Of a stretch of DNA of 64,000 nucleotides, positions 31-63,800 are shown piece after piece. The stretch is from Patiria pectinifera (Eukaryota; Echinodermata; Asteroidea; Valvatida; Asterinidae): the NCBI GenBank assembly GCA_029964075.1, contig CM057138.1:13634932-13698931 (forward strand), in the 5' to 3' direction. A model generated the notes under the pieces. That model was not told the origin of the DNA, made no database searches, and was given only the letters and a program-made list of their open reading frames with translations. Made by a program: the position numbers and the translations under genes. Within the stretch, counting starts at the first letter, position 1. Each line of letters begins with the position of its first letter.

Positions 31-211
31 CTTGACAAAACCTGCCGTCACCCTCAAGTCCTTCAGGGCAGGGGCCACAGGTGTTGTTCAATGACGGTGG
101 CGCTTCGTCAAAACAAGCCACGCCCATGAAACAGGGGCCGTCCTCACAGGCGTCGTAATCAACTTCACAGAACTCACCACTCCAGCCAGGCTCACACTCG
201 CACAGCACCAC
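31..211 (-). CDS. EGF-like exon (last exon in the window)
   Basis: 181-bp exon, phase 0 to phase 1, acceptor TTATCTAG, donor CAAG|GTAGGC. It encodes VVLCECEPGWSGEFCEVDYD, then ACEDGPCFMGVACFDEAPPS and CGPCPEGLEGDGRFCQ. That is the end of one EGF and a second EGF-like module. The transcript continues past the left edge, probably to more EGF and, by analogy with MUC4, a membrane segment (not visible). Confidence 0.87.
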
Positions 212-3200: not shown

Positions 3201-6200
3201 CGCAAAACCTTTGGCAGAACATTGGTTTTACAAATGACCACTAAACAAAATAAACATTTTTTTTTTTGTACGGAACCGTTCTGCCATTTTTTAGTAATGT
3301 TCAACTGTAAATGATCATTTGCATGCACGATTGTCATGATATGGTGAGCACGTGTACGTGCGCTGTGTGAACGCTGATGATGCATGAGCATCATATCAGC
3401 GTATGGTGTCAACGATATCAAAAAGACTCGGCCCAACCCTTCCTTTGTGACAAATAAAGGGCTACTTATGAACCACAGGCTCTACTTACTTGCTGCACTT
3501 TCGCTGACAGAGTTCATTTCATTCAGCATCACTGTAGACTGTCCGATGCTTTCATCGTCTGTCGCCAGTGTGTCATACAAACACATTTTGTTGTCCCCGC
3601 ACAGCTCTTCAGCCTTTGCGAGTTTTTCCGGTGTGGCAGCTGCTACAAGATCTTCATAGAAACTTGGCACGAAGGAGTGGTCATTTGATAATGCCCAAGT
3701 CTCGTCACCCACATAGTAGAAAAGAGAATCTTGTTCCGTGATACGCCCTGTATAATAATAATAATAACACCGGAGTCTTATAGAGCGCACTTATCTACCA
3801 ACAATTATAGATAATTAAAACGCTAATAATTATGTCTATTTTTTTAAGACAGGTAATGAAGTTCATGAAATCATGAGACCCATTATGTGGCACCTGTATA
3901 AGGGTAAGGTGCTGTGGCGCATATTGCAGCAACTGTTAGCAACACCGGGGCAAACCCCTTCTCTTAGCGATAAGTATTACTTGGTTCTTTGACGAGCATT
4001 ACGCACGGCACTTTACGTTCAACCCGAAGGACGAAACAATAATGGTTAAGTGTCTTGCTAAAGGATACAAGTGTGCGTATTCAATTGAATGTCTTTGCAA
4101 AGTTTTCCTCGAACCTCATCCTGATCTAACTACGGATGCCACTGGTAAAAGAAAGTCTGAAAGCTTTCATTGGGCATCCTGGCTGAATGCTGAATTATGA
4201 CAAAATAACCATATCATGCAAAATAATTTTACAGCAGTAAACAACAGTTAATTGATTGACTTACAAGTTTCACCAAAATCATAGAAATCTTTTTCAATCA
4301 TCGCTCCGTTGTCACCGGTGGCTGGTTGTATAGTACCATCACGTCTGGTTGCATCATTGCTTTGGTCGCCATCCCAAACACCTGTACAGCAGACATTTAG
4401 TCAATCATTCAAGCTACACAGACGGAGAACCTGCATGATCTCTAAATACATTAGTATTTGAGAAGGACAACCCCTTCAAAGTTCATGAAATCGTATAAGT
4501 TGCTTATTGGTTGCTATTTATATGTGCCTCGACGGTGCCTACTTCCCTGTACCCTGATTGGGCAACTCCTGCAATACTCCTTTGTTTCATGTGGATCTAA
4601 CTTAAGTAGGCCCTTTAGGAAAGTACATGGAGATCAACATCGCGCCCACTTTTTCAAACAATATGCGTAGTATTGTAATTGAATCTATCACAAGTAAATC
4701 ACAAAAGTGTAAAGAACAATAACAAAGGAATGTCTCTGTCGCAGTTGAATGCTTGACTTGACGAGGGTTTGTATCGGACTTTCATTTACTTCAAATGCAC
4801 TTGTGAGAACTTGTGAGGAATTGAACAAATTAATGTACATTGGACTGAAGTCAACGTGAATTGTTTAAATTTTGTAAGTTAAGGCAACCAATTCCGTGCA
4901 GATATATTTTGTCTTCATAATTCGAGTTTTACTCACCCAGTAATCCTTTGGTCTTTCCACGATATGTTTGCCCAAACTGGACAGTGATGTCTCCAATGCT
5001 GTTGTTTACTCCGACTGTAAACTGAATATCGCCAGGGAACATGGTGACCACTTTGTTAGTTGACGCTTCCCTTTTGACAGTCACATTGCCAATTAGCAAT
5101 CCTAGAGAGGATAGAAGACAATATAACTCACAACTACTTATTAAAAAGTCAGTAAGAAATTCTTGGTTTTTAATTATTTTCGCCATCAGTTCTAGGTTCA
5201 ACGCCACTCATAGATTAAGGCTTCTAAAACTAAGAAACAACGACAGGCAAAAATGCTGCTTGGTGCATTCTAAATATAAACCTGAAAGGTATGGTAGAGG
5301 CATGATGTAATCTAAAAAAAAGCTCAGCATGGGACTTATATCAGGGTGTGATCCATTGAAGAATCACTGCGTTACGTATGGGCTGATCAGCACAGATGTT
5401 GTAATTATAATATTACGAATAAAGGGGGCGGGACTATCAGGTAGCATTAAAACTCCATGCACATGTACCTGCTGTTGTAGGCGTGACAACATCCCCATTG
5501 ACAGTTGTTATCAGATCATCAGCTTTCTGCCTTTTGTTTAATTTCACTTCAACCTGGGGAAATTTAAAAAAAACAACTTCTTATCAAATACGACAGGTTC
5601 AGAAAGCTAGGTCATTATTTCCTTCCCACTGGAAACATTTCGAAAGTGCAAGGTACCTGCAGAACATGTGATATTTCAGTTAGTTTCGGAAGTAGGTTGT
5701 TGCGTTGCCAACTCCAGAGGATATTTAAAAAAAAAAAGTCAATTTCAAAGATCACAATGTTTATCTTAACGAAAATTGGAGTTTCAATATTCAAGTCAAG
5801 AATGTCAAAATATTTCAAGATTTTTGGTCGTATGGATATTGGAGCAAGGGATACACAGCAGTCCTTTTCAAATCTACAAAACAAGTTTTAAAATAATTTC
5901 TCACGTTTTTTGGGCAGGTGAATATAGAACTCATATCATGTTGATTCATAAGCATAACCCGGCTTATAGCAACGTGCAAAAAAGCATGTGAAAGTTAACT
6001 ACTTAATTAGCTACAGCTGTACAATTTTGCAGGTGCAACTCAAATTCTAAGATCACATACTGAATTGTTGCAAAATATTTTTGACAAAGAGAAAATGTAA
6101 CAAACCCTTCCTTCTCCAGGATACTCTGCAGCAAACCCAGAGTAGAATGTTGCATCCGTTAGTTGACCAGTTTCTACATTGGTAGCTCGCTGCGTCCGGC

Positions 6201-9200
6201 CTTGCAGTTCAAAGATTGTTCCTTCGTTGTCATCTTCGATGAGCGCTACCGTGTATTCCCCCAGACCATTGAAGGTGTACTCAACTCCGTCCAGGGATTT
6301 GATGTGGGGGTCTCCCCAGAACCAGACTTTGAGAATTTCCAAAAGGAAACAAAATTGACCAAATAGATTGTATTCAATCCATTTGTTCTTCATTTGTTGT
6401 CAGTAAGAAATCAGAGAAACCTCAAGTTAATGGAAATGTGACCAACCATTATTTCAGCATTTTTTTTGTGTGCGTAAGCTGGTAAAAATGTACCGATTAA
6501 TAACCTTTTCGCTTTTTCAATAAATTGAAATTTTGCAAATGTAGCAAGCACATGGGCGGATCTAGAATACATTTTTTTGAGGGGGAAGGGGTGGGGCAAA
6601 ACAAATTTGGTCCCCCACAAAGTGAGTCAAAAAATTACGGCGTGGTGTACGGGGCCCGCTGAAGGCCCATGGATTTTTTTTTTGATTATGGATGCTCTGA
6701 TGTGCGATCTGATGCAATTTCTTTTCATTTTTTTAACGAAAAGATGGTGGTGTACGCAGTGCTTGCGACGTCACTTAAAAAAACCAATTGGGTTCTTTTT
6801 TTCGGGGGGGGGGATGGCCCCGTTGCCCCCCCCCCCCTCATCCGCCCTTGAGTAAGCATGGATATTTACAACTATACAGCCAAGATCTGAAAGGCATATT
6901 ATCAATCATCGTCTTTGTAATATTAAAGACACAAATGGCTTGTTCAGAGTTCTCAGTAATGCAACTTACACCACCATGGTGGTCGGTATCTCCAGCAACC
7001 CATGGCCGGTCTGTAGGAGTAGTACAGGCTGCAGAGTGTAGAAGCCTGACAGCAGTAATACCGAGGCAGTACTTCCTGATCTGTGTACAAAACACGAATA
7101 TGCTTATAGTGGTTTAAACAAAACATTGAACGTACGCCATTTATTTAACTTATCTTTTTTTATTCTCATTTTATAGTAATTTACTTTGTATTGGTCTTCA
7201 ATGGGCTTTCTTGTTTGTTTGTTTGTTGTTGTTTTTTTTTTCGTTTTGTTTTGTGCATTTTGTTTTGTTTCGTTTTGTTGTGTTTGTTTGTCCAAATTTC
7301 CTTGTCCGTTTCTTTCGTATTGTTGTGAGTAAATAGGGGAAATATTTGAGGAAATTTCGCCTCATACAAACATGCAATTTGGCACAAAGTCAGAGTATGT
7401 TTTAAAAAAGATATTCGGCTATAGTGTAGATATATATCACAGATTTGTGCTTTAAAAATGTTTTTTTTTTTTAACATACTCTGACTGTGTGCCAAATGCC
7501 ATGCTTGTTTCATCAAAGGCACAATCCCTACACCTATCTGCGATACTTTTTATTATTATTGTCTGTGTAAAGTGTCTGCTACATTAATAATTTCAGAAAT
7601 GTAGCATGATATTAATTCATATTTTGAGGGGCCAGTAGCTCTGAAATGATGATGAAAGATTCCGTAAGCCTGGCGCCGGGAAACCCAGCAAAACAATTTC
7701 CAGCGCAAACTTCAGCGCTAACCAACGTTAGCAACTCGTGAGTATGAAAAGGGGGCGTGACACCCTTTCTTTGGAGGGCCATATCTCAGAAGCCCTGGGG
7801 AGATGACCCTTCAAACTGTGCATCCGTTCATTGTACATTATTTACAGGGTACTACCAGAAATTGTTTGAGTCGGTAGCTGTGGAAGATTCCTCGACTTTG
7901 GTTGGGTTGATTATGGAATAACTCAAGTAGCTCCATGAAATAGACATAAGACATGATGACATTTCACTCTGTTTACTGTTTGCTTTTCCATGGGAGCTAT
8001 AGGTGGGTCTTGACCCCACCTAGCTGCCATCGTACATGTAAACAAAGCAAGATGTGATTATGACGCAGGTCTATTGGCCTCGACTCCAGCTGGTTTTAAT
8101 GTAATGTTGCAAAGGTGATGCTGACAGTGTTGTCCTTCTAAGTGCTTACCGTACCACTGGTTGAACCGACCAGGTGTGTAAAACCAGGGACTGACTGGAT
8201 TATATTCAAAGACGGAAGCAACTACTGCACTTTTCACGCCTCGGAGAAGACTCCATGTCCATGTGCTGTAGCAGCATAACGGGCCCGGGGTGTAAGGAAA
8301 CTGAAAGGTCCGGACATAGCAAACAGCAGCTGCATGAAAATTACATTCAATTGAAAAAAAGAAAAAGAAAAATGAGCAGAATAGGTAATCAGTGTGGAAG
8401 GGGTTATACCGTTTGTATACGTAAACAATACAGGGTAAAATGCCAAACGCTCTTTTCCAAAAATGTGAAAATATATAGGACCTTAATGTTGAGTATGCCA
8501 AATTTAAGAAAGGTTTGCCGAAACACCATTGGAATAATTTCTCAAACTAAGATAATTGCTCTGAACAGAACCTGCAGAGGTATGGACTTGTCAGAATCTC
8601 TGACCGTCTTTATGAGAGAACGGTCAGAGCTGAAAAGAACCGGAGGTATAAACTCGCCGCTCCGGTCAGTATGCTCTAACCGTTCTCCAGAAGACGGCCA
8701 GAGCATACTGACCGGAACGTCGAGTTTATACCTCTGGTTTTTTGTTCAGAACCAATCTGTTAATTTGAGAAATAATTCCCACCTAATGTTTCCGCAAACC
8801 TAGTATCCCCACCATGCAAAGCCTCCAATCTTACTTGAGTAAACCATTTTGGCTTTCAGAAATTGAACCGCAAAATGTATTTTGAAAATGTAAGAAATAC
8901 ATTTTGGTATATCGTGTCTGATTTTCGTGAAGTTTGAGAGTCTTCATATCTCAGCATCCAGTTGTTGGAAGAATACCCATTTAAAAATCAAATAGTTTTT
9001 GAAATGTCGGGCTTGTATTAATTGTTGTTTGCTAAACAAAAGAACAACACAGTCAAATGTCAAGATAAAATGAAGCGTTGATTCAACCGCTGTTCATGAA
9101 CTGCCCACTGTTTATTCAAGCATGTACTAATGATGGTCGGTGGGGGGAGTGGATACCCTGTACTCACCGACTGATGAGCTGCTTCCTGAATTTGGGAGGA

Positions 9201-12200
9201 AATAACTGTAACCGATGGATGTCCACCTTGGGTCCCAAAATGCCTGCCACCAACTGCATGGACAAGTGTGCGCGGTCCTATACCAGTAGTAAAGGATAAA
9301 ATTATTGACAACCTGCCCACTGTACCAGTTCCGACAGAACAAGCGGGGATTCACAAAATTGTCTGGTAGGCTGTCAAGTTGCTGGACCCAGCGCCCGTGC
9401 ATCCCGGTATTTCCCATAACACTTCCAGGGCGGAAACGCAAGTAGCTTGGTACGTTCAGGTAGAATTTGTCGCCATATTGTCCGCAGGTGAAGCCCTGGA
9501 TGACGTTGTCGTTTGGCAGGAGGTTTTTGTTCCAGTTCATGCCGCAGCGCTCGTAGTTGAAGATAACATAGCCATGAGTGTAATCTGTCACAAGCACAGC
9601 TTGGAAAGAGTTGGTACTCTGAAGAGAAAAAAAAAATACAAAAAAAATGTTAATCCGAAATGTTTCAGATATCAGTTCAGTTCGATTTCCCTTCACTTAC
9701 CAACAATATCGAAAAGTTTTATTTAATGTCCACACTCTGGTTTAAATATATATACACGTATATACATATTTTAAAATAATATATAGTATTATACAATACC
9801 ATTTCACAAAACAGTGTAGAACAAAATGCATAGTGATGCAAGCTTTGTTAGATAAACTGTTCATTTTTAAACAAATTGTATGCTGCAAATAAATATCGTG
9901 AGTATTTGTCACATAAGTCGTGTACTAGCACTTGTTGGACATGATTTTTAACAAAACGTTGCACAGCCAGAGTTAACATGTGTACGAGGTTACACAGCGT
10001 ACGAGGTTATATACAGACCTACGGTGGTAAAGCGATTGTGATGATGAACCCAAACTCATCACCGACTAAACTAACGATTCGCTTCTGCACCTGATATAAT
10101 AAAGACAGTGAGAGACATGATTTAAATCAAACAACCCTGTCACAAACACTTACTTTATCGGGTGAGAGGGCTTCTACATAGCGCCACGTGATGACAAGAG
10201 CCCAGGCTGCATTGAAGCTGCCATACCGGGCAGACACGATGCTACTCAAGGTAGATAACATGGTGGAGCCACTGCCATCATAAACCTGAAAAAGCAGGAG
10301 AACTTATGCCGTGGTGTTGTAGGCCAAATAAAGTAAAGTGTTTTGAGGTGAGGTGCTAGATCGGATGTTAATGAGGAGACTATACCACAGACTTGGGGCA
10401 GCTGTATACACCAAGATTAGTTCTGCCCAGGATTGTTATGATCTCGGTACAGCAAGACGTTGTAGGTTAGAAGACCTGAGACAAGCAAGACTGGAATTAC
10501 AAAAAAACCACCAAAAAAAACACAAGGGTGATAAACAGGTCTGTGCATCAAATTACTTTATTTCATGCGCTTGACAATCAGTGTGCAAGCGGCAGTGTGT
10601 CCATCTAAAATAGTTCTGTTTATGCAAGGAGTGGATTAAGTGACAGTTATTACAATTTGTGTCTTCCAATGGCATGGATTAATTATTTATGTTTTATTGG
10701 GGGGGGTGGACTGGATGTGAACGCCACCATGTCCCCCCCCCTCCCCCTCCAAGAGCAAGCTAAAACATTTCCACAGTTTATCCAATAATTATTGAACTAA
10801 TTAATTAATTATTTAATTTATTTATTATTTTATTTTATTTTATTTTTTGTTTTGTTTTTGGGGGGAGGGGGTTGGGGGTTGAAATATGCCACTAACATGA
10901 GATGACTTCCATTACCGCCAACCCCGCCCCTGCTTGAACTCCTTCGTATGCAACTTTTTGTGTGAACCATATCCCACAGAATGAGTCTTAATCTCGTTCT
11001 TAATCACCGCTACGTCTCTAAGCGCAAAGGGTGTATGCATGTCTGTAAGATAAAGGGTCTTTGGCATAATCAAGTACGAATCGAGCCTCAAATAAACACA
11101 AGGGCGGATCCAGGGGGGGGCCAAAGGGGGCCATGGCCCCCCCCCCAAAAAAAAAAACGAAACCAATTTTTGGACCCACTTTTTTGGAGGACCAACATTT
11201 TTTTTGCCCCCCGCCCCAAATTGTGTTCTGGATCCGCCCTTGAATAAACAAGGTCAATTAAGGTCAGTTTCGTAGTCTTATCAAGGACGTTTGGATTGCA
11301 CTCAACTATGCAGTAATCACGCGAAGTCTGCGAGGAGATAGAAGCTTGCTTTTCTTATGCACTACAAAGAGCACGCGCTGCTCTCAATCTGATATATAAT
11401 TCCGGTAGAAAATATCGAGTTACTACTTTAGATTCCTTTAGATAATTGTTTCGGGGCTTGTTATTCTAAGATTGCTCTAGCTACTACAAACTCGTTTTGT
11501 TCAGTTGGGCAAAAGAGGTTATTCTAAAGATGTTTTCCACAAAGACACTTTATTAAAAAGAAACACTAGCCAGGGGCTAATGACTGTTGAGCTTTGTTGT
11601 AATTGGTCCGTGTCAAAATAAGCTTTGTTCGGTTGATTTTAAAAGTCTGCAGTATGATTTTGATTTTCGCATGACAGAACGGATAAGGTTACTTAGTATT
11701 AATTTTCTTAAAGTTGGACATGGTTCACTGTCCAAGACGACACGGCAACACAAAACTGAAACAAACTAACCTGAAAGAAGACATTCCTTGTTTGAGAAAA
11801 CCTTCTGCTGTTGACGTCCGCCCAAAAAGGAGCTATCATTTTTGTTGGGCCCCTGAAGAAAGATTTTCTGGTGCCTGGGTAACCTCGTCTGTTCAGACGT
11901 CGCGCATTGGTAAAGACAATGACACCATTATCTGTGAACTGCAAAAACAGACAAATCAGAGATGTGTCAGGACCGTGAAAAAAGGTTTTAAATTATGTTA
12001 TTGGATTATAATTATTTTAAAATTTGGAGGTGCGTATAATTTCATGACACAGCTAAGAACAAGTTTGTGTGTTGACAAAATCCCTTGTCCATTTCACAGA
12101 GACCTACATTACACAGCCAAGAGCCAGCTAACTGAGCCAGGGCCAAATTTGTGTCCAATAACAACAAAATCTACATGTGCACACCACCGGTAGCGTGAAA

Positions 12201-15200
12201 TCTGCTTGATTTTGTATTTTTTGTCGCTACACTTGGCACAATGTCTGTGCTTACTGTTTAGCAGCACCTTGAAACTGGCCCTTGGTGAGAAAAACCAACT
12301 GATGTGACTCGTGTCCTTTCACAAATCTTTTACAAAGTACTGACACATTCTCAACCCTGGGTTTCTATAAAACCAAATCACAAATGTCTACACAATACCA
12401 AGCTTTTTCCTGCCGAAAATACCACGATGTGTAGTTCTGAATGACACTTAGTGTCAGATGCACAATTAAAGAAGCGGTTCCTCTGGGTAAACCCCAATAA
12501 ACCGTGCATTACCGCGCGGTAAACCTAGAGGTTTTTCCGGGTTGGACTACGTGTCTTGTCAGACTGTCTTCTAGGAAGCGGTTTTCAAAATGAAATATTT
12601 TAGGCATTAAGACTAGTTGCTTTCCTCAACCGTTTATTGTTACCTCCACCACCGATCAATAATTACATTTTCCCCCAGAAATGCAAGGGATACATCCTAT
12701 TAATTTCAATAAAGCAGAACGTCCATATTTATTTTACACAAGAATGGAGGTCCCACATATTCTTGTTCCGTTAGTGTTGTTTGTTAGGGTAAGTTTGGCA
12801 TCCAATGGTCAGTATGATTGTAAATAAATTGAATGTTCGCTACAGCCAATTAGTAGGCACACATGTTTTGCATTATTATAGTCCAGTACAATGCTACTGC
12901 GTGTGATTAAACAAACAAGGTATACTTAAGCCGTGACCTCGAACTTCAATGCAGGTGTTCTATTCCAAAAAAAAAATATGCATTTTCCTCTTGTTTTTCA
13001 TAAGTCATACTTACATAGATTTTCTCATGCAGCTCATTGCAGTAAGGAAAGAAATTTGGTGGGCTGATGGTTCGTGAGATCAAGTCTTTGTTAGACGACA
13101 GTGATCGCTGTTTAGACAAAAGGGAATTATTTTTTTTTAATTCAGTGCGCCATCGATATGATTCAAATAATAAAGAAGAAATTGTTTTAAAAAAGACAAC
13201 ATATCTATAAAACAAATCCTCCCGATTCTTCAACCAACCCATAGACGTGCATATACAGCTATAGTGACTAAGATTGTAACTAACGTAAGAGAGAAGTACT
13301 TCCCTGCATTTGCCAATGTGTATTAAAGGGAATGTACATCATTGGCGTATACTTTAATTTTCAGAAATGAACTGTTTGAGGGGTTAGTATAATAGATCAA
13401 ATTATTGTAACACTGACATGTTTGAAGTTTTGTTTTCGAAAATGCTGGAAAAACCAAGAAAAAAACGAAACAAGTAGTCTGGTTCCCTGACTCCACTGAA
13501 GATGAAATGGATCAATTTACAGATGCCAGAAAATTGTACGCTAAGGGAACCAGTCTAGCTGACCTGCACCCATTCATGAACATAAAACCAATTAGCAAAC
13601 AAAATTGGACTGAAAAATCGGTAAATTTGGAGTAGTAGTACAAAAATGTTAGGTTTTTCCTACGGTGGTCGGCCGACCACCGTTGGAAATGTAAACAAAA
13701 ATACAATTTTTTTGAATATGACTTCACACCAGGTGCCATAATTTTACAGGATGCTTTGGAAATTTATATAAAATACCACTTTTCTTGAAAAGGACTAATT
13801 CACACATAGTGCCATAATTTTACAGGATGCTTTAGACTGTCATTTACCAACATCCTAGAAAGGTATTTCGTAAAAACTTGGTCATTTTATTTTTCGATGT
13901 TTGCAAATGTTGTATTTTCCCTTTAAGTAGTCTCTACTTTAATAAAAAAAAAAACAATAACAAAGTAATTTGGAGTAAGGACACTGTGTATTCCAGTACT
14001 ATCGACCTGTTCCTAACTGAAACAGGTTGGCTGCAATTTCAAACAGGGATTCAACAGTTGTGTAATGATTTTCACAAATGGTTAATAAATGAACACGTAT
14101 TATACATTGCATTTATTCCCTGGCTACTCCATAAACACAAATAGTGCTGCGATAGTTTGGTACAGAGTGTAACAGGTACATGCGGTGATGCACCTTATTC
14201 AGCCATTTGTGATCGTGCCCCCTGAAGAGATTTATTAAATTGTAACTGTTGAATGCGATGGTGCCAGACTATTTATGTGTTCCAAACTTCACTTTCACTT
14301 ATTTTTAAATGTGGCTTGATAAGGTATATTTAATCACCGATTTTCAATTAGTCATCAGAGCTGACTGATACTGAATTGTAAGTTATTTTGTGTGATTGCT
14401 GTCTTTTCTATTCGCGGGTCCAGGAAAGGAAGAATTTGCCTTTCTTTTTGAATCAATAATTGTAAGGTGTCCACTTAGAATGAGGTTCCAAAGTTGATAC
14501 AAATCAAATATTCAGAAACTCATGCTCAATGAAATGAAAGTTTACTTACAGGTTGTAGTTCTTGTGAAAGACGCCTATCTCCGACAGCGGCTCCAAAAGG
14601 AACAAAATTGCCCTCTGTTTTGGAAAAGGGCAAAATCATTGGTAAAACAACTTAAATAAGTCTATCCAAATATCCATCGTTTCCTCCAAAAGGCTAGCAT
14701 TTGTTCTGCAGTATATGCTTGTAACAGAAAAAAACCCACTTCTTTAGCTCCAAAAGGATATCAGCCATATTTTTTTTGGAGTAAAAATAAAAAGCAGTTG
14801 CAAACTCGTCCCAGACATTTACATATAAGGTTGGCTCCTTTTGGCTTCACAAATTTGCCATGTAGAAACAATATTTAACAGAAAATAACAGCTGTGAACT
14901 AGAAAAAAACACCCTTTTCTCATTAATGGGTAAATCCAACACTTATGGATTTCTTACCATAGACACTGAATGAGAAGCTCCTTGAAGTACTGCAGATTTC
15001 AACCATAACATCGCAAGTCACTATGTGAGATCCAACACCAAACGAGATGCCTCCGCTCAGAGGCACAGCATTTCCGTTCTGATTGGTACAACTAATGGAT
15101 TGGTCGTCCAAGTATCTGCCTGTTACTGCAGGCCACGAAACTAGGACATCATTCTGTCCAGGCAGGGTACACTGGTCAACAACCGATGGCACCGTTATGC

Positions 15201-51200: not shown

Positions 51201-54200
51201 GATAGCTTCAGATGTAAAACATACCAACTTCTTTTACTAATAAACATAATGAACAATCATGTGAATGCTTTGCAATAACCATACACGTATTTTTGACGAG
51301 CATTTTTTGAGTTTGTACGATTCAAGTCGCAACATGTCAACAAAAGGACTGCTCATTCAAACCAAGCACATTAATTACAGTTAGGCCTACCTTGGGCGAG
51401 CAGATTTTCGATGACGATCGAAGCTTTCTCAAGCGCACCGCGAATTAAATCCAAAAGATTACTGATGTCAATCACAATGACAACTGTTATGTCCAAAGTC
51501 ACCCCGATTGCGTTCGCAGAAAACTTGAAAACAACCACGATTGTTACCTGGTTGACTGAATACCTTACACTGAATTCCAAAGAGATCTATAAACAAAGGA
51601 AAACAATTGATAGAGTATTAAAGAATGTATGCTTACAGAGTTTTTTGTCAAAAAAAATCCTTTTGTTTTCAACATGTGTGTATCTAGTCAGTTAAAAACT
51701 ATAGCTTCAACTCATTGCAATGAAACGCTCAGGGGATACTGACATCTTAAAAGTCCTAACCAAGCGGAAGAGCCTCTACAACGCTATTGCGCTGGGCGTA
51801 TATTGATTTTCAACCTTGATGTTCAATCACAAGACAATGGAAACCCTTCGGGAATTATGTGTCAACAAACCATACTGCGAAAACACAAGTGTATCATCAG
51901 CATGCATGCCAACAGCTCTCTAGATAGACCACTAATCAAGGTTGTATACGCCAAACAGGTGTCTGATTTTTCACGTTTACGTCTGCAACGCTTTGCAAGT
52001 AAAAACTGCGCCTGTGTGAATAGGTACATGTAGTGTGGCCATCTATCCACTGCCATTTACACAGGACATGTACTTCCCAGAAATAGGCTCCATGTAAAGT
52101 ATTGCCTCAACGATAGACGTTGGAACGCATTGATGCATTGATGTTTGATGCATTGATGCTAAAAAGCGTGGTGCTTGAACAATGATGATTATGCTTCGCG
52201 CCATACGAACCACCAGGCGCTCGTGGTGGGTCCCCCATTCCAACACTCCTCCAAGGTTATCATAACAGGAAAATTAAAGCCAATACAAGTGCAAACACAG
52301 TATGATCTAGCTTTTGGTGCTAACAGTGGACTCCAGGCCCAGGATATTATTATTGCCCGAGTACTCGTGAATCACAGTGGACAACAAAGACCTTCCCTTT
52401 GATGGGCTGCAAAGTCTATTCAGTGGGCGAAGACGACTCAACACCACTTATAATACTCACTGCATTGATGATGCTTAAACTTAAATTCTTGTATTGTTCT
52501 GTTGTAGAATTCAAGTAAGAATCGTCGAAAGTAGCATTCACACCATCCATTTGAATGATATCAAATGTTGCAGTATATGTTGTCTCCCCTGAAATTCAGA
52601 AACCAGGACATGATCTTTACTTAAGGTAAAAATAATCCCATGAATCCTGGTGACTCTAAGAACACATGTTTATGTGCATTACAAAGGAAGCAGGATGACA
52701 TGTTAGTGTTTGATTAGTGGCTCCTTACTCACGAAAGGACACAAGCAAGAAGGCATGTTAATGATGGCTCTTTACTCACGCGAGGTCACAAGCAATAAAT
52801 GATGTTAGTGTTTGATTAGTGGCTCTTTACTCACTCGAGGACACAAGCAAGTAGGCGTGTTAGTGTTCCATCAGTGGCTCCTTACTTACGCGAGGACACA
52901 AGCAGGGTGACATGTTAGTGTTTGATTAATGGCTCTTTACTCAGAAAAGGACACAAGCATGTTGGCGAGTAATGTTAGTTTAGTGGCTCTTTACTCACCC
53001 GAGAACACAGACAAGGCGACTTGTTAGTGTTTGATTAGTGGCTCTTTACTCACGATAGTACACAAGCACATTGGCGTGTGAGTGTTTCATCAGTGGCGTC
53101 CCACTGGTGTGGGTAATGTTCGGATACAGGGCCAAAATTCAAACGATTTTCAACTAAACAATGACATTTTTAACAAATTAAACTTATTAAGAATTTTACA
53201 GTGAACAAGCAGACATGATGTCGCCAGGATGGGGCAAGGGGGCGCTTGCCCCTCCCCCCTTCGAAAAAAGCCCCCAAAAAGCAGAAAGAAGGGGGCAAAA
53301 CTTCAGGAAAAAAAAACAAGAAATAGAGGTGTGAAGTTATACTTTTTATTAATGTTATACACATTTTACAAAATGGTTTTTTGCATGGGTGTTAATGGGT
53401 GTGGGATGGGCAACAAATGTTCTCCCCCCTTCACCGCCCGCGAATTTTTGTTTTCCGACAACTGCATATAGGTGTACGATATGGCGTTTTGGAATTCACT
53501 TTTCTAAAAAACATGAGAAGAAAGTAAATAATTAAAAAAAAATACAAAATGGCGACTCGCGCCCACAACCTCATGGTGCAAAATCACGACCCTATCGACT
53601 GAGCTATGGCAGGACACTATGGGTAAAAATAGTTATATATCTGCGTTCGTATTACAAAAGTATCGTTGAGGGCGCTAAACAACCATGTATGTGGATGTAG
53701 TTTGGGAAAAGAAAAATTCGTCCTCCGCCCACCCTAAAAAAAAAACAATTAAGAATATGTAACAGAAAGTACAAGGATTTTAAGGGAAAATGTGCGTTGC
53801 CCATATAAAAAATCCTAGCGACGCCAATGCAAGCAGGAAAAAGTCTAGACTTCAGAAAAATATAGGATTTGGTATTTTTTTAATTTTTTTATTTACTACT
53901 GGTACTTAAGAAAAGAAATATGTGGTATTTGATCACGCAGTAATTGACGTAAATTGATGGCTGGTCAATGCTGTTGTTTCAGTTTGTTCTTCACTGGTTT
54001 GAATAAGTGAAATAATCATGATTATCATCAATGCAAATGTTAATACTCCTAGGCAAAGGAGACACCTTATGCACTGCATTCAAGTGAGCTGATTTGTCGT
54101 TAAATTCTACATTTAGGATGATTCATCCTTTTCTGAAAAATTAACTACATTACACTATCTAAGGGTAATTTCCTTTTTTTTTCAATGAACCCTGCACACA

Positions 54201-57200
54201 CTCTAGACATTAGTGTACAGCAATGCATTTTTTTCAAGGGAGGTTGGGTATCAGAATAATTAAACTTTAAATTATACACTTTGATAGAAACAACATCATT
54301 AGTAGTAACGAATTTATTCTGTCATTCTGTCGATTTGTTTTTCAATGATTTTTTCCTTTGTTTTTCCTTGATAAAACTGTCAGTGACGTATGATCTAAAT
54401 GTTAAAGGTGAAAAACACCCTCTGTTTCCGATAACATGCCTTAAAAAAACATATATAGGTCAATACAGGTACATGGAGGAAAACAAGGGCAAATTTGTGG
54501 GATTTTTAGGGTTTTTTTTTTCATTTTCTTTTTGGTGCTGATTGGAGCGTTCACACAATATTTACATGTATGCGCATTTTCGGACACAATTATTTTTTTT
54601 TCTAAAAAAAATGATAGGGTATCTCGGGCTGCGAATAACCGAAAGCAGAAACTGTTTTGAAGGAGGGCAGGGGGGGGGGGGAAGTACCGTCGGTCACCGG
54701 TCAAGCCGACCGTTACAGTGAAGCAGCACAGTTTAGCAATGTATGCGTAGTACTCAGTTCCATAAAAGTGGTGGGTACAAGCGCTTGTGCAAAGAATTGG
54801 GGGGAGGCGACCCCTACCCCAGTAAAAGGATTGGGTGTCATGCAAATCCCCTACCTCCCCCTGGCCAACTCCCTAGTTTTGCCGCCCATGTGGTTCATAC
54901 TGTTGTTATAGTCATTTCTTCAGTGATGTTTAATTTATTTTGGTTCATTCAGTTCTTCAGGGGAAAAAACTCATGGGATCAAATTCTGACAACGGAGCAC
55001 ACATCTTTGAACTACCCGGCCTGACGCAGTGAGCTACCAATGCTGAAACTGGGGAACTAACGGATGCAACATTGTACTCTGGGTTTGCTGCAGAGTATCC
55101 AGGAGAAGGAAGGGTTAGTACACTGTAATAACATATGTAGTATTAACTCATAAAATGAAAATGTCTTGTCAAGAGATACATCGATAACAGTCGTAAGAAC
55201 AAGACTATACATGCAGGCATTTACAATGACCACCACCATACAAGGCCAAAGGCAAAGTCAAGATATATTTCAATAATACAATTTGACAAACAAAAGTGTT
55301 TCCCGCATGTAAACAATGTCACTAGCTTTGGTTGGTGTTATTGTACCTTCAGTGGTGGTTGGTGTTGTTGAGACTCCAACTCCGGTGGTTGTTGATGTGG
55401 TGGTTGATCCTAAAGTGGTGCTTGATACAGGAGTGGTGGATGTAACTGGAGGGGTGGTTGCCGCTGGAGTGGTGGTTGGTGTTGTTGACGGTCCATCTAC
55501 GGTGGCAGTTGATGGAAAGGTGGTTGATCCTAAAAAAGTGATGGATGTTATAGGAGTGGTGAATGTTACTGGAACGTTGGTTGCTGGGGGGGGGGGGTAA
55601 TCGTGGGCAGTGGAACTGTTTTGATGGAGGGAAGTCACCGGTCAAGCCAGCCGTTGCAGTGAATTGGGTGTCATGCACATCCCCTACCTCCCCCTGGCCA
55701 CCATCCTAGTTTTGCCGCCCATGTGGTTCATACTGTTGTATTAGGCATTTCTTCAGTGATGTTTAATTTATTTGGTTCACTCAGTTCTTCAGGGTGAAAA
55801 AAAATCGTGGGATCAAATTTTTACAATGACTGAATCCTTAACAGGGCCTTAAGCGCTTCAAAAACAGATTTTTTTTAGGTCAAACTTTCAATGGCTTTTC
55901 TAAAATTCCTTTCAAAACAACTGAGAATTTGTTTCCCCAAAATCCTTGATTTTAAATCGGTTAACAGTAGAGATTCAATGAGACTTAAACACATTTGTCA
56001 ATGTGTGGTTTTAGGATGTATGCTTTTCGATTTAAACTGACAAATGAAATACTTATAAAATAGTTTTTAGTGTGTTGTTCTTCCTAATATTTGTAAAGGG
56101 TTGATCAAGTATATATACATATACATATGTACATTTTACTTGTACACATCAGTAAGCTTAGTGTTGTATGATTTCCATATACTAATTGATGTAAACTTAA
56201 ACATTAAACGCATATGGAAGTCAAGCAAAACAAACACTTTTATAAGTGCAAGTGAGGTCTTCTTTTTAACTTGATATTATCACTTACCAAGCTCATATGT
56301 GGTGCTTGGATCTAGAGTGGTGCTTGGTTCTAGAGTGGTGCTTGGTTCTGGAGTGGTGCTTGGTTCTGGAGTGGTGCTTGGTTCTGGAGTGGTGCTTGGT
56401 TCTGGAGTGGTGCTTGGTTCTGGAGTGGTGGTGATTGACTTTGGAGTAGTGGCTGGTTTTGGGCTGCTGGTTAGCTCTGGAGTGGTGGTTTGTTCTACTA
56501 ATAGTTTTCAAAAGAAGATGTCATTTGAACATAATTTTAAACAAAACAGTAAGATAAAAATGGGACAGGTGCTAAGGAGTATGTGTTGTCTTTCTCATCA
56601 AGCCCTTTAATAGGTATGAAAGCCTGCATTGTGTCTTCCTTATTTAGGATGATTCATCCTTTTTTCAATGAACCCTGCACACACGCAAGACAGCAGTGTA
56701 TAGCAATGCATTTGTTTTAAAATTAGGTTGGGTATCAAAATAATTAAAGTTTAAATTATACACTTTAAGAGAAACAACATCATTGGTAGTAACAAATTTA
56801 TTCTGTCATTCTGTTCATTTGTTTTTCAATGATTTCTTCCTTTGTTTTTCCTTAATAAAACTGTCAGCAACGTATGATCTAAATGTTAAGGGTGAAAAAC
56901 ACCTTCTGCTTCAGATAACATACCTTGTCAAAACATTTATAGGTCAATACAGGTACATGGAGGAAAACAAGGGCAAATGTGTGGGTTTTTTTTGGGGGGG
57001 ACGCAATCTAACAGGACATGTAAAGTGTTAAATAATTGGCTCGTTGATAACAAACAAGCAAAAGAGCACGTTTGTTTGATTAACGGCTCTTTACTCGCAC
57101 AGCAATAAGCACGCAGGCATGTTAGTGTTTGATTGATGGCTCTTTACTCACAAAGAAACCCCAAGAGGGCATGCTAGTGTTTGACAAGTGGCTCTTAACT

Positions 57201-60200
57201 CATACATAGTTGTTGATGAGTGGTTCTTTACTCACACGAGGACATTATCAGGATAGCATGTTAGTATTTGATAAGTGGCTCTTTCCTCAAGCAAGAACAC
57301 AAACAAGAGGAAAAATTAGTGTTTAATTAGTGGCTCTTTAAAACTGAGATTTTCAATTGAAAAATAAAAACAGACAGAATCCAACTTTAATTGTCATAGG
57401 TGGTTATTAATTGCCTGAATTTGTTTTGACACAGAAAGACAGTTTGAAACTCTCCCTAAATTTTTTTTAGTCAGTCTTTGTTGAAAACTAGTTAGTCCCC
57501 TTCGTCCCTTGACAGTTGCATCATTTCTAAATTGCTACCTCCCCCCCCCCTCCACGCCTGCTTTGTACAATATTGTACAATTTGAAAAATTGGGGTCATC
57601 TGTTATGCAAATGGTAGACACAATCTGAACCGTTAACGAATTCCTGCAAATACTAGTACTGTGATCATTGCAATGGTACGAACAAGTTGTCCAGGAAATA
57701 TGTCATGGTGGTTTGACAAAATGGAGAGTGTGTATATTCCTGTTCATTCCGTGTGTATTGTGCTCCCATAGAAAAGCCATACATTCTTTCCTAAAAATCC
57801 CATCGGCGCTGCCTAAACATGGGTATCTATACCGACTTGAAAATCGCACTGTACTATAAACCGAAAGCACAATATGAGTAAACATTAACCGTCTATGCAA
57901 ACGAGTATTTGGCATCTACAATCGAACATTTGCTTTTCAAATATGGAGTCCAACTGTTATTCCGGACGACGAAAAGAATAATGACTTTGAAGTACGTTTT
58001 CCTCTTAAAATTGCATAGGCATACGAATAAGATGTACATGAACATATTTCTGTGCTATGGAGTGGTGTTAAGACTTTGGATTTTTTGTTCAATGAAAAAA
58101 ATGTGAAATTAATATATCTGCTGCAAAGTGAAAAGGTAAACTGTGGATTTCATTTCGAAACCGTCAAGGCCAGTCAAGATAGATTTAAATGATACAATTT
58201 GACAATAAAAAAAGGTCACTATAGATTTGGTTGGTGTGATCGTACTTGGAGTGGTGGTTGGTTCTTGAGTAGTGGTTGGTGCTGTTGTGGGAGGTCCATC
58301 TACGCTGGTAGCTGATGTAATGGAGGTTGATTGTACCGGAGTGGTGGTTGGTTCTGGAGTGTTGGATGCTTCTGGAGTGCTGGTTGGTTCTTGGGTTGTG
58401 GTTTGTTCTGGAGTGGCGGTTTGTTCTGGAGTGGTGGTTTGTGTTGCAGTGGGAGTTCCATCTACGGTTGGAGTTCCATCTTACGTTAAAAAAAAATGAA
58501 CGACTGCACACTGTCAAGTGGTAATTTCGTTTGTGTGTACCCTGCAGACACACAGAACTCCCAAGAGAAAAAAAAAAGTATTTATAGTATAAATAGACAC
58601 TTTTATAGAAACAACATCATTGGAAAAAAAATGTATTTATTTATTGGGCTAAAGGTTACAACCCGATACTCCCATGGTTCGATAGTCCCGAGGGTCATTA
58701 GTCCAAAGGTTCGTTAGTCCGAAGCTTCAATAGCCCGAATGCTCGATAGTCCGACGAGCACCTTAGTCCGAAAACATAAGAAGGTTAAATTGTCCGAAGG
58801 TTCGATAGGCCGAATGGACGATAGGGTTTGATAGTCCAAATCGACAATATGGTCCAATAGTCCAAATGGACGCTGAGGTTCGATTTGAGAATTACAACTT
58901 AAAAGCTTACCGATTACATCGAACGTGAAGTATGCTGATGCCGTGCAATTACCATCATTGGTCACAGTGCAGGTTACATTATGAGACCCTACTGGAAAGT
59001 CCCCTCCTGTGCTCGTCACATTGGTTCCCCCTGCATCAACCGTACACGTTATTGCTTGACCATCTGTGCTGGTTGCGTTCACTTTATCCCATGTCACAGG
59101 AACTAATGCTTGGCCATGTGCAATGTACAGATCATCAACATTCGGCACATCAAATCTTGGTATCGCTGCAGAGCAATTTACAATATTTATTTATCATGTC
59201 AATGATGCAAACACACTACCAAACACTGAGCAACGATCGAGAATAAAACGAAAATAAAATTCAATTGATGTGGAATTGACAGCTTTCTGCAAATTTTCAA
59301 GGATGGCATTGTTTTAGGTGATGCAATTTATTTTAAGTTTGCGTGTTATTGCCATGTTTAAATCAAATAATCTTGACAAGTAATATGAACAGCTACTCAT
59401 TACACATTTTAAATGCAAAATTCTGTTTAGACTTGACCAAGGCTATCAGCTTGTTCCCATATGAGCTTGTTCCCGCTACCGCACACCGCGCGCGCAGCGA
59501 CACAATGTTGTACTATACCGTTAGCCCCAACGACCCTTGCGGGTGCTTTGTGTGCATGTACGTACGCCCAACCCACACTTCTGCAAACAGCCGTACAGTA
59601 AGTCGAGGCGAAAGATAGCCTTGACGCAACCGTGTATGCTGAATATGATAATTAGTACGCGCTATGGTAAATAGTCTTCTCTCATTGGATAACGGCTGTC
59701 AAAAAATGAATATTTATTGCATTGCATAATACGACCAAAGGTTGATAAACCAGACGGCCTGTGGTAACAATAATTATTGTAAAACCGTGCCCCCTTAAAA
59801 TCTTAAATAATAGTAGAATAAAATTTATAAAGTAACAAATAGTTTGGGTCAAAAATGAAATGAAAAGGATGAAAAAATAGACATTCAAAAAAAATGGCAA
59901 ACGGTACAAAACCGCACGCCGGCAAAAACGATGTCACCATGCACAGAGGCCACGTTGGGGCCGTCCACTGTAGGCACCGGCCCGGCTGGCGCCATGAAGT
60001 AAGACACGCTGCGCTTTCACGTTCAGCGGCAAAAAAAGGTCTCACACTTTTGAGTATATCTACCGCTGACTTTTTTTTTTTTGGGGGGGGGTATTTCTTC
60101 TAAGCTGTCAAGGGGATATGGGAAAAAATATCTCTCCTTCAGCAAACTTATTCTGTAAGACTGATTTTAACTTGTATGAACAACTTATAAGTTATATGTC

Positions 60201-63200
60201 GTATGTACGACTATATATCGACAGGGTACAACATATTTCGACAAGGTACGACTAATTATCATCGACAGGGTACGACATATATGTCGACAGGGTATGACAT
60301 ATCAAACATATGACATAATGTCGACAGGTGCCGGTACGACATATATGTCGTGCATAAGTCGATTCGACAGGGTACGATATATGTCGCATACGACAAAGTC
60401 GTATATAAGTACGACTTAATATCTCGTGTGTACAAAATATGAATTGTAACTCGTACGTTCGACTTGTTTGTCGATATTGCCGTACATACAACATATCTTG
60501 TGAGAACGACTTGTATCTCGTGCGATTTACATCTACGACTTACATCTCGTACGTATGTCGTAGGTACGACATATACGATTCATACGTACGCGTTAAAATA
60601 CATGTATCGTACGTATGAGATGTAAGAATTCAGGGAGAGTTTTTTTCACCATGTACCTGACAGTTTCGTATATTTCCATCCCAAAGTCAATAGCTCGTTT
60701 CTTGCAGTTAATTCATACGGTGTGCTTATAGATACGATAACCTGCATTCGATAAAATGGGTATGATTTGACTTGGGTCCGCTGTCAGAATAGCACGGCAA
60801 GTAGCGGCGTTATAATGTACGCTGTTGCACCGACAAAAGGTCGGCGGACTGTCTTGAACTGTCCAATTCGCAATACATTGGAAATAGTATCATTTTGAAC
60901 AATTGTTCACTCATATAGTGGCATATTTCATTTGTTTGTAATAAAACTGGAGAAATGGTTTAAAATGGGATTGAAATACCTGGACATACCATGGTTGGAG
61001 TGAACATACATGTACGTGGTGTATACAGTAATTTGTGGGTCATGAATATGTATGTCACGGGTCAAAGTTTACGGGCTTTGATTGGATATCGATATGCGCA
61101 TCAGAAATTTTCGGCCGATTTCGGTCGAAACTATAAAGAAACACATTAGGAATTCGCCACGGTTGCGTCAAGGCTATCTTCCGTTTCGACTTATTGTACG
61201 GCTGTTTGCGGAAGTGTGTGTGGGGCGTATGTACATGCACACAAAGCACACGCAAGGGTCGTTGAGGCTAACGGTAGCTATAGTACAACTAGTGATTGTG
61301 TCAAGGCTAAATTCTGTTGTGACTATTTTCAGTAAATATATTCGCTTCCAGGTGAATGCATTATCAAGCTGAAAAATATCCCTGATTTTAAGACAATTAG
61401 ACAATAAAAAGGCATGACTCATGGAAGATCAGTCGAAATAAATCAAATGATCTTACCCCTGATATAAAAAGTGAAAGTCACTTCTTTTACGCATCCACAT
61501 GGTAGAATAACGATGCAGGTCACTGTATGACATTCTACTCCAAATGAACCTCCGGTCGAAGACACTGCCTGTCCTCCCACAGAGTCTGTACAAGTGATGT
61601 TTACAGGTGAAGCACCTACAACGCTGATTTCATCCCATGTCACAGACACAGATCCTTGAGATTCTGCGATGCATTGATCTTCAACTACCGGAACGATAAC
61701 TGTGGGTAGTTCTGTGAAGGTACATAATCAATTTTCATTAACCATTAAGACAAATTACCTACCAAATATTGATCAACTCAACAATCTATTCGATGACAAT
61801 GATATAACACTTAAAGGTTACTTGTACAATTTTAAATGCTTGTGCAGTCTTTTCAGACGTAAGCCTGGGTAAAATTGAATTTTTTGGATCATACTTGTTA
61901 TTTGAGCAGTATTACTATTTATGACAGTGGTTTTGCTTGTGGATCATAATGATTTAGCTCCTTTGTATATTTTACTTTGCACCATAACATTTTAAATGAC
62001 ACGATCAAGCCTTCACTATCTCATGGCGGCTGTCTCGGACCAAAAAAAGCCATTTTACATTTATAATGTCATACAAGTTCATAAAGGCCAAATAGAAAGA
62101 AAATAACATGTTTCTTGTCCGCACTTGTTTCAGTTTTTTGGGCTGTTGATTTATGCTGATGTGTTTAAATCAAATAATCCTGACCGAGAGACATCTTTAG
62201 GTGCAATGTACGATTCAACTGTTAACATCCTGACATGTCGTGCAATAATTGCCATGAAAAGATGCTCACGTGCAGGGAAATGAAGTATCACTCGGAAATA
62301 CAATGCATCATTTTCGGACAATGTTACAAATGAAAACTGTCAGGAAGGTTCATTGAGGTCAAACGGGAAAAAATGACGTTTCTTGTCCCACATACTCCAT
62401 ATAATATGTCTAGTTTTGAATACAACACCGACTTTTTCGTTACCTATAATTTTGGAAAAGTTTTTAGAAAGCAAAGGGAAATACTCAATTAGAACACAGC
62501 ATGCAATTTGATTCATATCGTATGTGCAATCAGAGATTTCGAAATTCCCTTCTTTCAAGAGCGTCTGAAACTTTTGTTATAATTGGCCTCAACAAAGTAA
62601 ATGAACTAATTACCCCAGACATAGAAAGTGATTTCGACGACTTTTATGCATCCACACGGTAGAATAACTACGCAGGACACTGTGTGATTTCCTTCTCCAA
62701 ATGAACCTCCAGTTGGAGACACTGCCTGTCCCCCCACAGAGTCTGTACAAGTGATGTTTTCAGGAGGGCCTTCGGCGGAAGTGATTTCATCCCATGTCAC
62801 GGCTACAGATACTTCAGAGTCTTCAAGGCATGCATCTTCCACAACCGGCACGGAAACTATAGGGATGACTGTAAAGCAGAAATATACAATCTTCATTAAT
62901 CATCTGCACATTACAGTTACTATTCAAACTATTGAATAACTCCATCTATTTGACGTTTGTGATAAAACCATCGATATTATTTATTCAAAAGTGCAACTGA
63001 CAGTCATTTTTGAACTATTCTTGAGAGGCTTTACATTCAGTGGTTAACTTTAGTTTCTCGGGTTGTTGAATTTCGCTGATGTGTCTCAATCAAAAAATCT
63101 TTACCGAAAAACATCAAGAGGTGCAAAGCATGATACAACTGTTAATATCCTGACATGTCTTGCAATAATTGTTTATAAAAAGATGCTCACGTGCAGGTTA

Positions 63201-63800: not shown

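What the first reader, a model, noticed from the sequence alone, without database searches (positions are those of the whole stretch)
31..63800. A single minus-strand gene links HYR arrays, five SEA domains, mucin repeats and a MUC4-type NIDO-AMOP-vWD-EGF core
The sequence shows 48 exons in consistent phase, 9,990 bp with no stop. NIDO-AMOP-vWD-EGF is known from MUC4-like proteins, HYR arrays from hyalin-like proteins and SEA from other mucins. I do not recall this exact order as a described protein. Inferred role: an extracellular giant mucin or coat protein in which HYR and SEA arrays act as a variable stalk.
Basis: partly seen in the sequence, partly recalled or inferred. Interest (0 to 1): 0.72.

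Follow-up and report, generated by a model that had tools for sequence, protein, structure and literature searches.

The report
Giant echinoderm mucin with HYR stalk
The window is the middle of a very large animal gene, probably from a sea star, that appears to make a giant secreted or surface protein: a MUC4-like mucin end joined to a long stalk of hyalin-type domains, most of which lie just outside the window in a run of 53 almost identical exons.

Summary
The minus strand carries one phase-compatible coding chain: 30 exons in the window without anchors, against at most 3 in 20 shuffles; 48 exons and 9,852 bp with motif anchors that I chose. HYR, NIDO, VWD and mucin-type repeats are real. 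SEA is sub-threshold but recurs in five two-exon units. AMOP is not recognised by Pfam. The chain runs past both window edges. Upstream are 53 tandem HYR exons, all 255 bp, phase 1-1 and intact, 98.6% identical against 94.0% for their introns, pN/pS 0.17. Downstream are calcium-binding EGF exons. One gene rather than two is supported by paralogs: the matching HYR exon lies upstream on the same strand at 10 of 10 close NIDO copies, window included; 32 of 37 NIDO places have C8-3 downstream. There is no transcript, signal peptide or convincing membrane segment, so both ends are open. The genome has bindin, which points to an echinoderm. Best reading: a MUC4-like giant mucin with a length-variable HYR/SEA stalk. 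New variant of a known kind.

The parts
58911..63800 (-). Four HYR exons (63546-63800, 62614-62868, 61457-61711, 58911-59165), all 255 bp, phase 1-1; two more lie right of the window, then the 53-copy array
   Evidence: kinship of the divergent type (first three) to other HYRs by hhalign 99.5%, E 3e-23
55347..58479 (-). Thr/Ser/Pro-rich (mucin-type) exons 58246-58479, 56288-56419 or 56476, 55347-55583
   Evidence: exact acceptors uncertain
51391..52588 (-). SEA unit 1: exons 52461-52588 (phase 1-0) and 51391-51586 (phase 0-1)
   Evidence: PF01390 E 2.7e-5, sub-threshold
45942..47137 (-). SEA unit 2: exons 47010-47137 and 45942-46137
41089..42286 (-). SEA unit 3: exons 42159-42286 and 41089-41284 (not itself scanned with Pfam)
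36060..37256 (-). SEA unit 4: exons 37129-37256 and 36060-36255
30613..31662 (-). SEA unit 5, the one 95.5% identical to the unit of paralog P2: exons 31535-31662 and 30613-30808
39027..50422 (-). Thr/Ser/Pro-rich exons between SEA units: 50342-50422, 50085-50165, 49002-49235, 44713-44793, 40037-40117, 39027-39248
34860..35330 (-). Thr/Pro-rich exon with 108-144 bp internal repeats (acceptor at 35237 or 35330)
22417..23436 (-). Mucin exon over 56 copies of an 18-bp repeat (PTTSVP/PTTSAP), 1,020 bp, phase 1-1 in the reading
   Evidence: other frames are also open over the repeat and were chosen
14958..21289 (-). Seven NIDO-proximal HYR exons (21035-21289, 19779-20033, 18906-19160, 18474-18722, 17754-18005, 16825-17079, 14958-15209), phase 1-1
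   Evidence: PF02494 E 1.2e-19 for five of them joined; counterparts of the last one at 10 of 10 close loci, window included
9168..11931 (-). NIDO domain on three exons 11771-11931, 10154-10285, 9168-9618; the last exon also begins the AMOP-position stretch
   Evidence: PF06119 E 9.2e-24, profile 8-185 of 186
6970..8329 (-). AMOP-position exons 8150-8329 and 6970-7080 (CPC...CCY...YYCC pattern), not recognised by Pfam
4265..6326 (-). VWD domain on exons 6106-6326 (weak splice scores), 5469-5553, 4937-5101, 4265-4381, with a GDPH sequence at its start
   Evidence: PF00094 E 2.9e-17
3490..3747 (-). MUC4-type C8-3 domain exon
   Evidence: PF23263 E 3.7e-12; genome place C10:13638443-13638565
31..3106 (-). 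Exons 2954-3106, 1174-1355 and 31-211, the last two with EGF-like cysteines; the EGF array continues left of the window
   Evidence: EGF match weak inside the window

Best explanation
The window is the middle of one giant minus-strand gene of an echinoderm (a sea star is likely) that encodes a secreted or surface MUC4-like mucin. From the N-terminal side it has 59 HYR domains (53 from a tandem array of near-identical exons), then Thr/Ser/Pro-rich stretches alternating with five SEA domains, a long 6-residue-repeat mucin exon, seven further HYR domains, and a conserved core NIDO - AMOP-position - VWD(GDPH) - C8-3 - EGF, then many calcium-binding EGF domains. Likely working: the core and EGF part assemble or anchor the molecule; HYR, SEA and mucin blocks form a long glycosylated stalk whose length changes by unequal exchange of phase 1-1 units, which keeps the reading frame; as proposed for human MUC4, cleavage at GDPH in the VWD domain could leave a giant N-terminal chain beside a shorter EGF chain. 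Shown by sequence: order, phases, domain matches, array, selection. Inferred: one transcript, secretion, glycosylation, cleavage, and a place in an egg coat, mucus or epithelial surface.
For: Open chain of 129 exons, 27,396 bp, no stop, from 110,900 to -25,458, 108 of 129 exons phase 1-1 (anchored by my motifs); un-anchored 30 exons in the window against at most 3 in 20 shuffles. The array spans 67,048-110,895 and the next full HYR domain begins 0.8 kb on. Array: 53 of 53 intact, exon identity 98.6% against intron 94.0%, pN/pS 0.17. Core against paralog P2: 22 exons, 1,465 codons, 0 stops, 0 frameshifts, pN/pS 0.27. Linkage: the HYR exon nearest NIDO lies 4.6-7.8 kb upstream on the same strand at 10 of 10 close NIDO copies (the window and nine others, on C10, C7, C19 and C1); HYR exons of the array type lie upstream of NIDO at C10:14.18-14.22 Mb (44 in the capped list) and C7:26.795-26.812 Mb (3 in the list); SEA lies upstream on the same strand at P2 (E 9e-22) and P1 (E 4e-12, two more at E 0.001-0.003); C8-3 downstream at 32 of 37 NIDO places. 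Pfam HYR, NIDO, VWD, C8-3_MUC4 and EGF_CA above curated cut-offs. GDPH cleavage of MUC4 is described as putative in PMC8660890 (passages).
Against: No transcript. No signal-peptide exon passed the thresholds between 111 and 144 kb, and none of five hydrophobic stretches listed between -25 and -50 kb looked like a membrane exon (by eye). SEA exons and three of the four VWD exons are absent from the un-anchored chain. Only 20 of 37 NIDO places had an upstream HYR in the capped, partly typed hit lists. Four weak SEA matches lie on C15, where no NIDO place of this subfamily is known. In P2 the order is SEA, mucin, two HYR exons, seven proximal HYR, NIDO, so blocks are shuffled between paralogs. 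P2 and P1 are recent copies (93% and 100% identity over the NIDO exon), so they are weak independent witnesses. The 7 kb at 23.4-30.6 kb could hide a gene end. A 500-N gap and a partial repeat of the EGF block lie left of the window.
Confidence: 0.75

Rival explanations
1. Two adjacent genes: an upstream hyalin-like or SEA-mucin gene (HYR array plus SEA) and a downstream MUC4-like gene that starts near the 22.4-kb mucin exon or the seven HYR exons.
For: The 7-kb stretch between 30.6 and 23.4 kb holds only two short doubtful exons. P2 lacks the SEA expansion and has another block order. A HYR array at C10:13.89-13.91 Mb has no NIDO copy of this subfamily near it.
Against: At C10:14.18-14.23 Mb and C7:26.78-26.81 Mb HYR exons of the array type are followed by the proximal HYR exons and NIDO on the same strand. 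SEA is upstream of NIDO on the same strand at three loci, window included. No search for a start or a stop exon was made inside 23-31 kb beyond the chaining itself; the signal-peptide search covered only 111-144 kb.
Confidence: 0.15
2. A decaying or pseudogenised segmental copy: the locus is a recent duplicate without a working product.
For: 26 of the 37 NIDO places are on C10; P1 is identical over 150 residues of NIDO.
Against: 53 of 53 array exons are intact with pN/pS 0.17. The core shows no stop or frameshift against P2 and pN/pS 0.27.
Confidence: 0.05
3. Array length and some copies are assembly artefacts (collapsed or expanded tandem repeats, uncollapsed haplotypes).
For: Near-identical units of about 835 bp, an identical NIDO copy 320 kb away, a 500-N gap and a repeated EGF block.
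Against: The units differ in their introns (mean identity 94.0%) and show a two-unit periodicity, so they are distinct copies. HYR exons of the same type with other sequences occur in number elsewhere.
Confidence: 0.15

Closest known systems
MUC4 / MUC4-like mucins (NIDO-AMOP-VWD-EGF)
   Same: NIDO, VWD with GDPH, the MUC4-type C8-3 domain and EGF in that order, with Thr/Ser/Pro repeats before them. Cnidarian MUC4-like proteins can also carry a SEA domain (passages of PMC9080433).
   Different: AMOP not recognisable to Pfam; HYR domains by the dozen and five SEA domains lie N-terminal of NIDO; many calcium-binding EGFs; no membrane segment found. In PMC9080433 the added SEA is C-terminal.
Hyalin and other HYR-array proteins of echinoderms
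   Same: Long tandem HYR arrays, here on phase 1-1 exons.
   Different: Hyalin is described as consisting of HYR domains (passages of PMC9382459). Here HYR is a stalk on a mucin core, and the array unit matches Pfam HYR only modestly (E 2.3e-5).
Sea urchin EBR1_5, a putative egg receptor
   Same: A SEA domain and exactly seven HYR domains are reported (order not given in the passage); the window has SEA units, a mucin exon and then seven HYR. Three of the seven HYR exons here have more amino-acid than silent differences against P2; in EBR1_5 positive selection was confined to three HYR domains (passage of PMC5521101).
   Different: EBR1_5 is 1,243 residues with a membrane domain in that gene model, and no NIDO or VWD is mentioned in the passage. 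Sequence homology could not be tested. Introns around two of the three HYR exons here are also more diverged.
Membrane mucins with SEA
   Same: SEA beside Thr/Ser/Pro-rich exons.
   Different: SEA here is in tandem, far from the C-terminus, and lacks a GSVVV-type cleavage motif (motif recalled; sequence).

Membership tests
MUC4-like mucins | NIDO domain | tested here: met
   PF06119 E 9.2e-24, positions 8-185 of 186
MUC4-like mucins | AMOP domain after NIDO | tested here: inconclusive
   No Pfam match listed with the limit at E 1; hhalign probability 3.4%, E 0.013; cysteine pattern and position fit
MUC4-like mucins | VWD domain with GDPH | tested here: met
   PF00094 E 2.9e-17; WGDPH in exon 6106-6326, an exon with weak splice scores
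MUC4-like mucins | MUC4-type C8-3 domain | tested here: met
   PF23263 E 3.7e-12; downstream of 32 of 37 NIDO places
MUC4-like mucins | EGF domains after VWD | tested here: met
   EGF_CA E 8.8e-58 for the first seven EGFs left of the window; the stretch inside the window is sub-threshold (E 0.0011)
MUC4-like mucins | Thr/Ser/Pro-rich repeat region | tested here: met
   56 copies of an 18-bp unit at 22433-23441 and exons between SEA units
MUC4-like mucins | Membrane segment and signal peptide | tested here: inconclusive
   None convincing in -25k to -50k or 111k to 144k; gene ends not established
HYR / hyalin-type proteins | HYR domains in tandem | tested here: met
   66 full HYR exons in the chain by a profile built from ten of the window's own HYRs; Pfam HYR above cut-off for the array unit and the proximal HYRs; the divergent type mainly by hhalign
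Hyalin | Protein made of HYR repeats | tested here: not met
   NIDO, VWD, C8-3 and EGF in the same chain
SEA-domain mucins | SEA domain | tested here: inconclusive
   4 of the 5 units scanned, all 4 match PF01390, best E 2.7e-5, 24.7 against a cut-off of 26.4 bits
SEA-domain mucins | GSVVV-type autocleavage motif in SEA | tested here: not met
   Sequence reads SVNQVTIVVV where the motif would be expected; motif and its place recalled
EBR1_5-type egg receptor | Homologous SEA plus seven HYR | not testable with these tools
   No eukaryotic protein collection was at hand; only the passage in PMC5521101

The most novel reading that the evidence does not exclude
This is one member of a large family of echinoderm genes (37 NIDO places found, 26 of them on one chromosome) in which a conserved MUC4-type core carries an exchangeable HYR/SEA stalk that grows and shrinks by phase 1-1 exon duplication, and at least some members are egg-coat proteins: sea urchin EBR1_5 (SEA plus seven HYR, under positive selection) would be an incomplete model of the same kind of gene, making this family candidate partners for sperm proteins.
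Probability: 0.15. Interest if true: 0.8.

Novelty: new variant of a known kind. Interest (0 to 1): 0.55.

Why it matters
It joins two protein kinds usually treated apart, MUC4-like mucins and HYR-array proteins, and shows how phase 1-1 exons let a giant extracellular protein change length without losing its frame: 53 near-identical exons under purifying selection are a clean natural case of homogenised coding repeats. The family gives a way to ask, locus by locus, whether stalk length and HYR sequence vary between individuals, which matters for mucus, adhesion and possibly egg-coat recognition. In the one library searched, a single paper held the words NIDO, AMOP and HYR together: a coral skeleton study whose passages list them as separate abbreviations.

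Tried and rejected
A hydrophobic ORF at 53,936-54,079 that looked like a signal peptide: the sister copies near 48.6, 43.6 and 38.7 kb and in P2 have stops in that frame, so it was rejected. First codon training used minus-strand loci in the wrong orientation and included window exons (used; its control gave minus 33 exons / score 539, plus 15 / 239, ten shuffles up to 3 / 6.9); it was redone with corrected loci from outside the window and the shuffle control repeated. The retrained model picked other frames in the Thr/Ser/Pro repeats, so mucin exons were anchored; there the region 22,417-23,436 was still split in another frame, and the phase 1-1 reading is preferred. The short exons at 24,492-24,668 and 29,577-29,639 are doubtful. 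Positive selection on HYR exons 1-3: 34 amino-acid against 9 silent differences, the other 19 core exons 18 against 49, Fisher p 8e-8; not claimed, because introns around two of them are also more diverged. COX1 search to place the organism: no match. PDB search with SEA: two weak unrelated matches. Rfam: no match. NCBIfam on the AMOP-position stretch: none. Structure prediction was not run: the spliced domains cross introns and would not count as the window's own letters.

Full report
What was checked. The window is C10:13,634,932-13,698,931 of a 613.5-Mb assembly in 1,020 contigs. A bindin match is present (E 1e-33); bindin is, to my knowledge, an echinoderm sperm protein, so I take this as an echinoderm. 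No COX1 was found.

The chain of exons. An exon-chaining script with splice scores and a codon model trained on 19 exons from other loci finds 30 exons, 7,179 bp on the minus strand (score 404) and 14 exons on the plus strand (score 106, of which 88 from seven exons antisense to the T/S/P-rich exons). Twenty dinucleotide shuffles give 1-3 exons and scores up to 7.1; a 15-kb stretch of the right flank, which also served as non-coding training, gives 1 exon. The un-anchored chain lacks the SEA exons and three of the four VWD exons. With anchors on recognised motifs the model has 129 exons, 27,396 bp and 9,131 residues without a stop between window coordinates 110,900 and -25,458; 48 exons and 9,852 bp fall in the window, and 108 of 129 are phase 1-1. 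The anchors were mine, so the exact count is partly by construction, and a few exons are doubtful.

The domains. Pfam on spliced pieces: HYR (array unit E 2.3e-5; five proximal HYRs joined E 1.2e-19; canonical upstream HYR E 4.7e-12), EGF_CA (E 8.8e-58, first seven EGFs left of the window), SEA (E 2.7e-5) and a second SEA-like stretch left of the window (E 6.3e-5), both below the curated cut-off. In the core: NIDO E 9.2e-24, VWD E 2.9e-17, C8-3_MUC4 E 3.7e-12. AMOP did not match, and profile comparison with three AMOP domains of the same genome was weak, though a CPC...CCY...YYCC pattern lies where AMOP should be. The divergent HYR-like exons at 61-66 kb: of four sequences scanned (three of these five exons and one of P2), one matched Pfam HYR (E 0.0013); their alignment fits the other HYRs at 99.5% probability. 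The VWD domain begins with WGDPH.

Beyond the window. To the right, 53 HYR exons stand in tandem at 669-1,355 bp spacing, 48 of 52 intervals being 824-854 bp. All 53 have AG and GT borders, 255 bp and no stop; 15 distinct protein sequences occur. Exons average 98.6% identity, introns 94.0%, pN/pS is 0.17, and copies two apart are more alike than neighbours, so the array probably grew by two-unit blocks. With two more HYR exons right of the window and 11 inside, there are 66. Canonical HYR exons follow at 114.8, 132.6 and 135.6 kb; whether they belong to the gene is open. To the left, 17 EGF domains of the calcium-binding type by my own profile lie between -0.8 and -11.6 kb, then other EGFs and the SEA-like stretch; beyond a 500-N gap the EGF block is partly repeated. 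No signal-peptide exon passed the thresholds in 111-144 kb, and no hydrophobic stretch in -25 to -50 kb convinced me as a membrane exon.

One gene or two. The NIDO exon has 38 matches at 37 places, 26 of them on C10; 10 places, the window included, are at least 74% identical. The HYR exon nearest NIDO lies 4.6-7.8 kb upstream on the same strand at 10 of 10 of these, and a second HYR further upstream at 10 of 10. Over the 37 places, 20 had an upstream same-strand HYR within 60 kb and none a downstream or opposite-strand one among the hits entered, which are a typed subset of capped lists; 32 had C8-3 downstream within 15 kb and none had it upstream or on the other strand. SEA of this type was found upstream on the same strand at P2 and, more weakly, P1; four weak SEA matches on C15 have no NIDO place of this subfamily by them. 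HYR exons of the array type lie upstream of NIDO at C10:14.18-14.22 Mb (44 in the capped list) and C7 (3 in the list); an array at C10:13.89-13.91 Mb has no NIDO near. I take one gene as most likely.

Evolution of the stalk. Four SEA units (37, 42, 47, 52 kb) are 95-98% identical to one another and about 82% to the fifth, which is 95.5% identical to the only unit found in P2. So the fourfold expansion is about as recent as the split from P2 or more recent, while the unit type itself is older. P2 has a SEA unit (profile), then mucin exons, two HYR exons, the seven proximal HYRs and the same core. Core exons against P2 show no stop and no frameshift in 1,465 codons and pN/pS 0.27. The stalk is the changing part and the core the kept part.

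How it may work. MUC4 is described as putatively self-cleaved at GDPH into a large N-terminal chain and a membrane-tethered EGF chain (passages of PMC8660890). The same four residues stand at the start of the VWD domain here, so a similar two-chain form is plausible but untested. The SEA domains lack the usual cleavage motif (recalled), so they are more likely spacers. The mucin exons and about 165 N-glycosylation sequons in the model suggest a heavily glycosylated stalk.

What is known. Cnidarian MUC4-like proteins with an added SEA domain are described (passages of PMC9080433). Hyalin is described as made of HYR repeats, and some sea star footprint proteins carry HYR (passages of PMC9382459). 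Sea urchin Ebr1 has HYR repeats (passages of PMC8403831), and EBR1_5 has a membrane domain, SEA and seven HYR, with positive selection in three HYRs (passage of PMC5521101). The main text of an echinoderm matrix review holds neither hyalin, HYR nor AMOP (term counts). I found no description of HYR joined to a NIDO-VWD core in the held library, which lacks most subscription journals and all gene-model databases.

Verdict. It is a new variant of a known kind: a MUC4-like mucin with a giant HYR/SEA stalk, one of a large family in this genome.

Noticed in passing
C10:13323329-13323778 (P1) against window 9169-9618: A NIDO exon 320 kb away is identical over 150 of 150 residues: a very recent duplication or an assembly duplicate.
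   Followed up: no
window coordinates -32198 to -31699 (left flank, C10): A 500-N assembly gap, beyond which the EGF block of this gene is partly repeated.
   Followed up: no
window 32198-32551, 37365-37663, 42396-42656, 47237-47646, 52688-53097: A 55/110-bp minisatellite sits beside the first SEA exon of each of the five units, apparently copied with the units.
   Followed up: no
window 24492-24668 (-), 34279-34638 (+): Related ORF fragments (SATF.LTSS.VDTAL.TV..GT) that look like remains of a mobile element.
   Followed up: no
window 18906-21289: The first three of the seven proximal HYR exons have 34 amino-acid and 9 silent differences against P2, the other 19 core exons 18 and 49; introns near two of them are also more diverged.
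   Followed up: partly
C10:13891728-13912844 (-) and contig C265: HYR arrays of the same type with no NIDO copy of this subfamily near.
   Followed up: no
C13:21.47-21.73 Mb and 23.58-23.79 Mb: Large clusters of HYR exons with high Pfam scores, probably hyalin-like genes; several successive matches have equal scores at regular spacing, as in near-identical tandem units.
   Followed up: no
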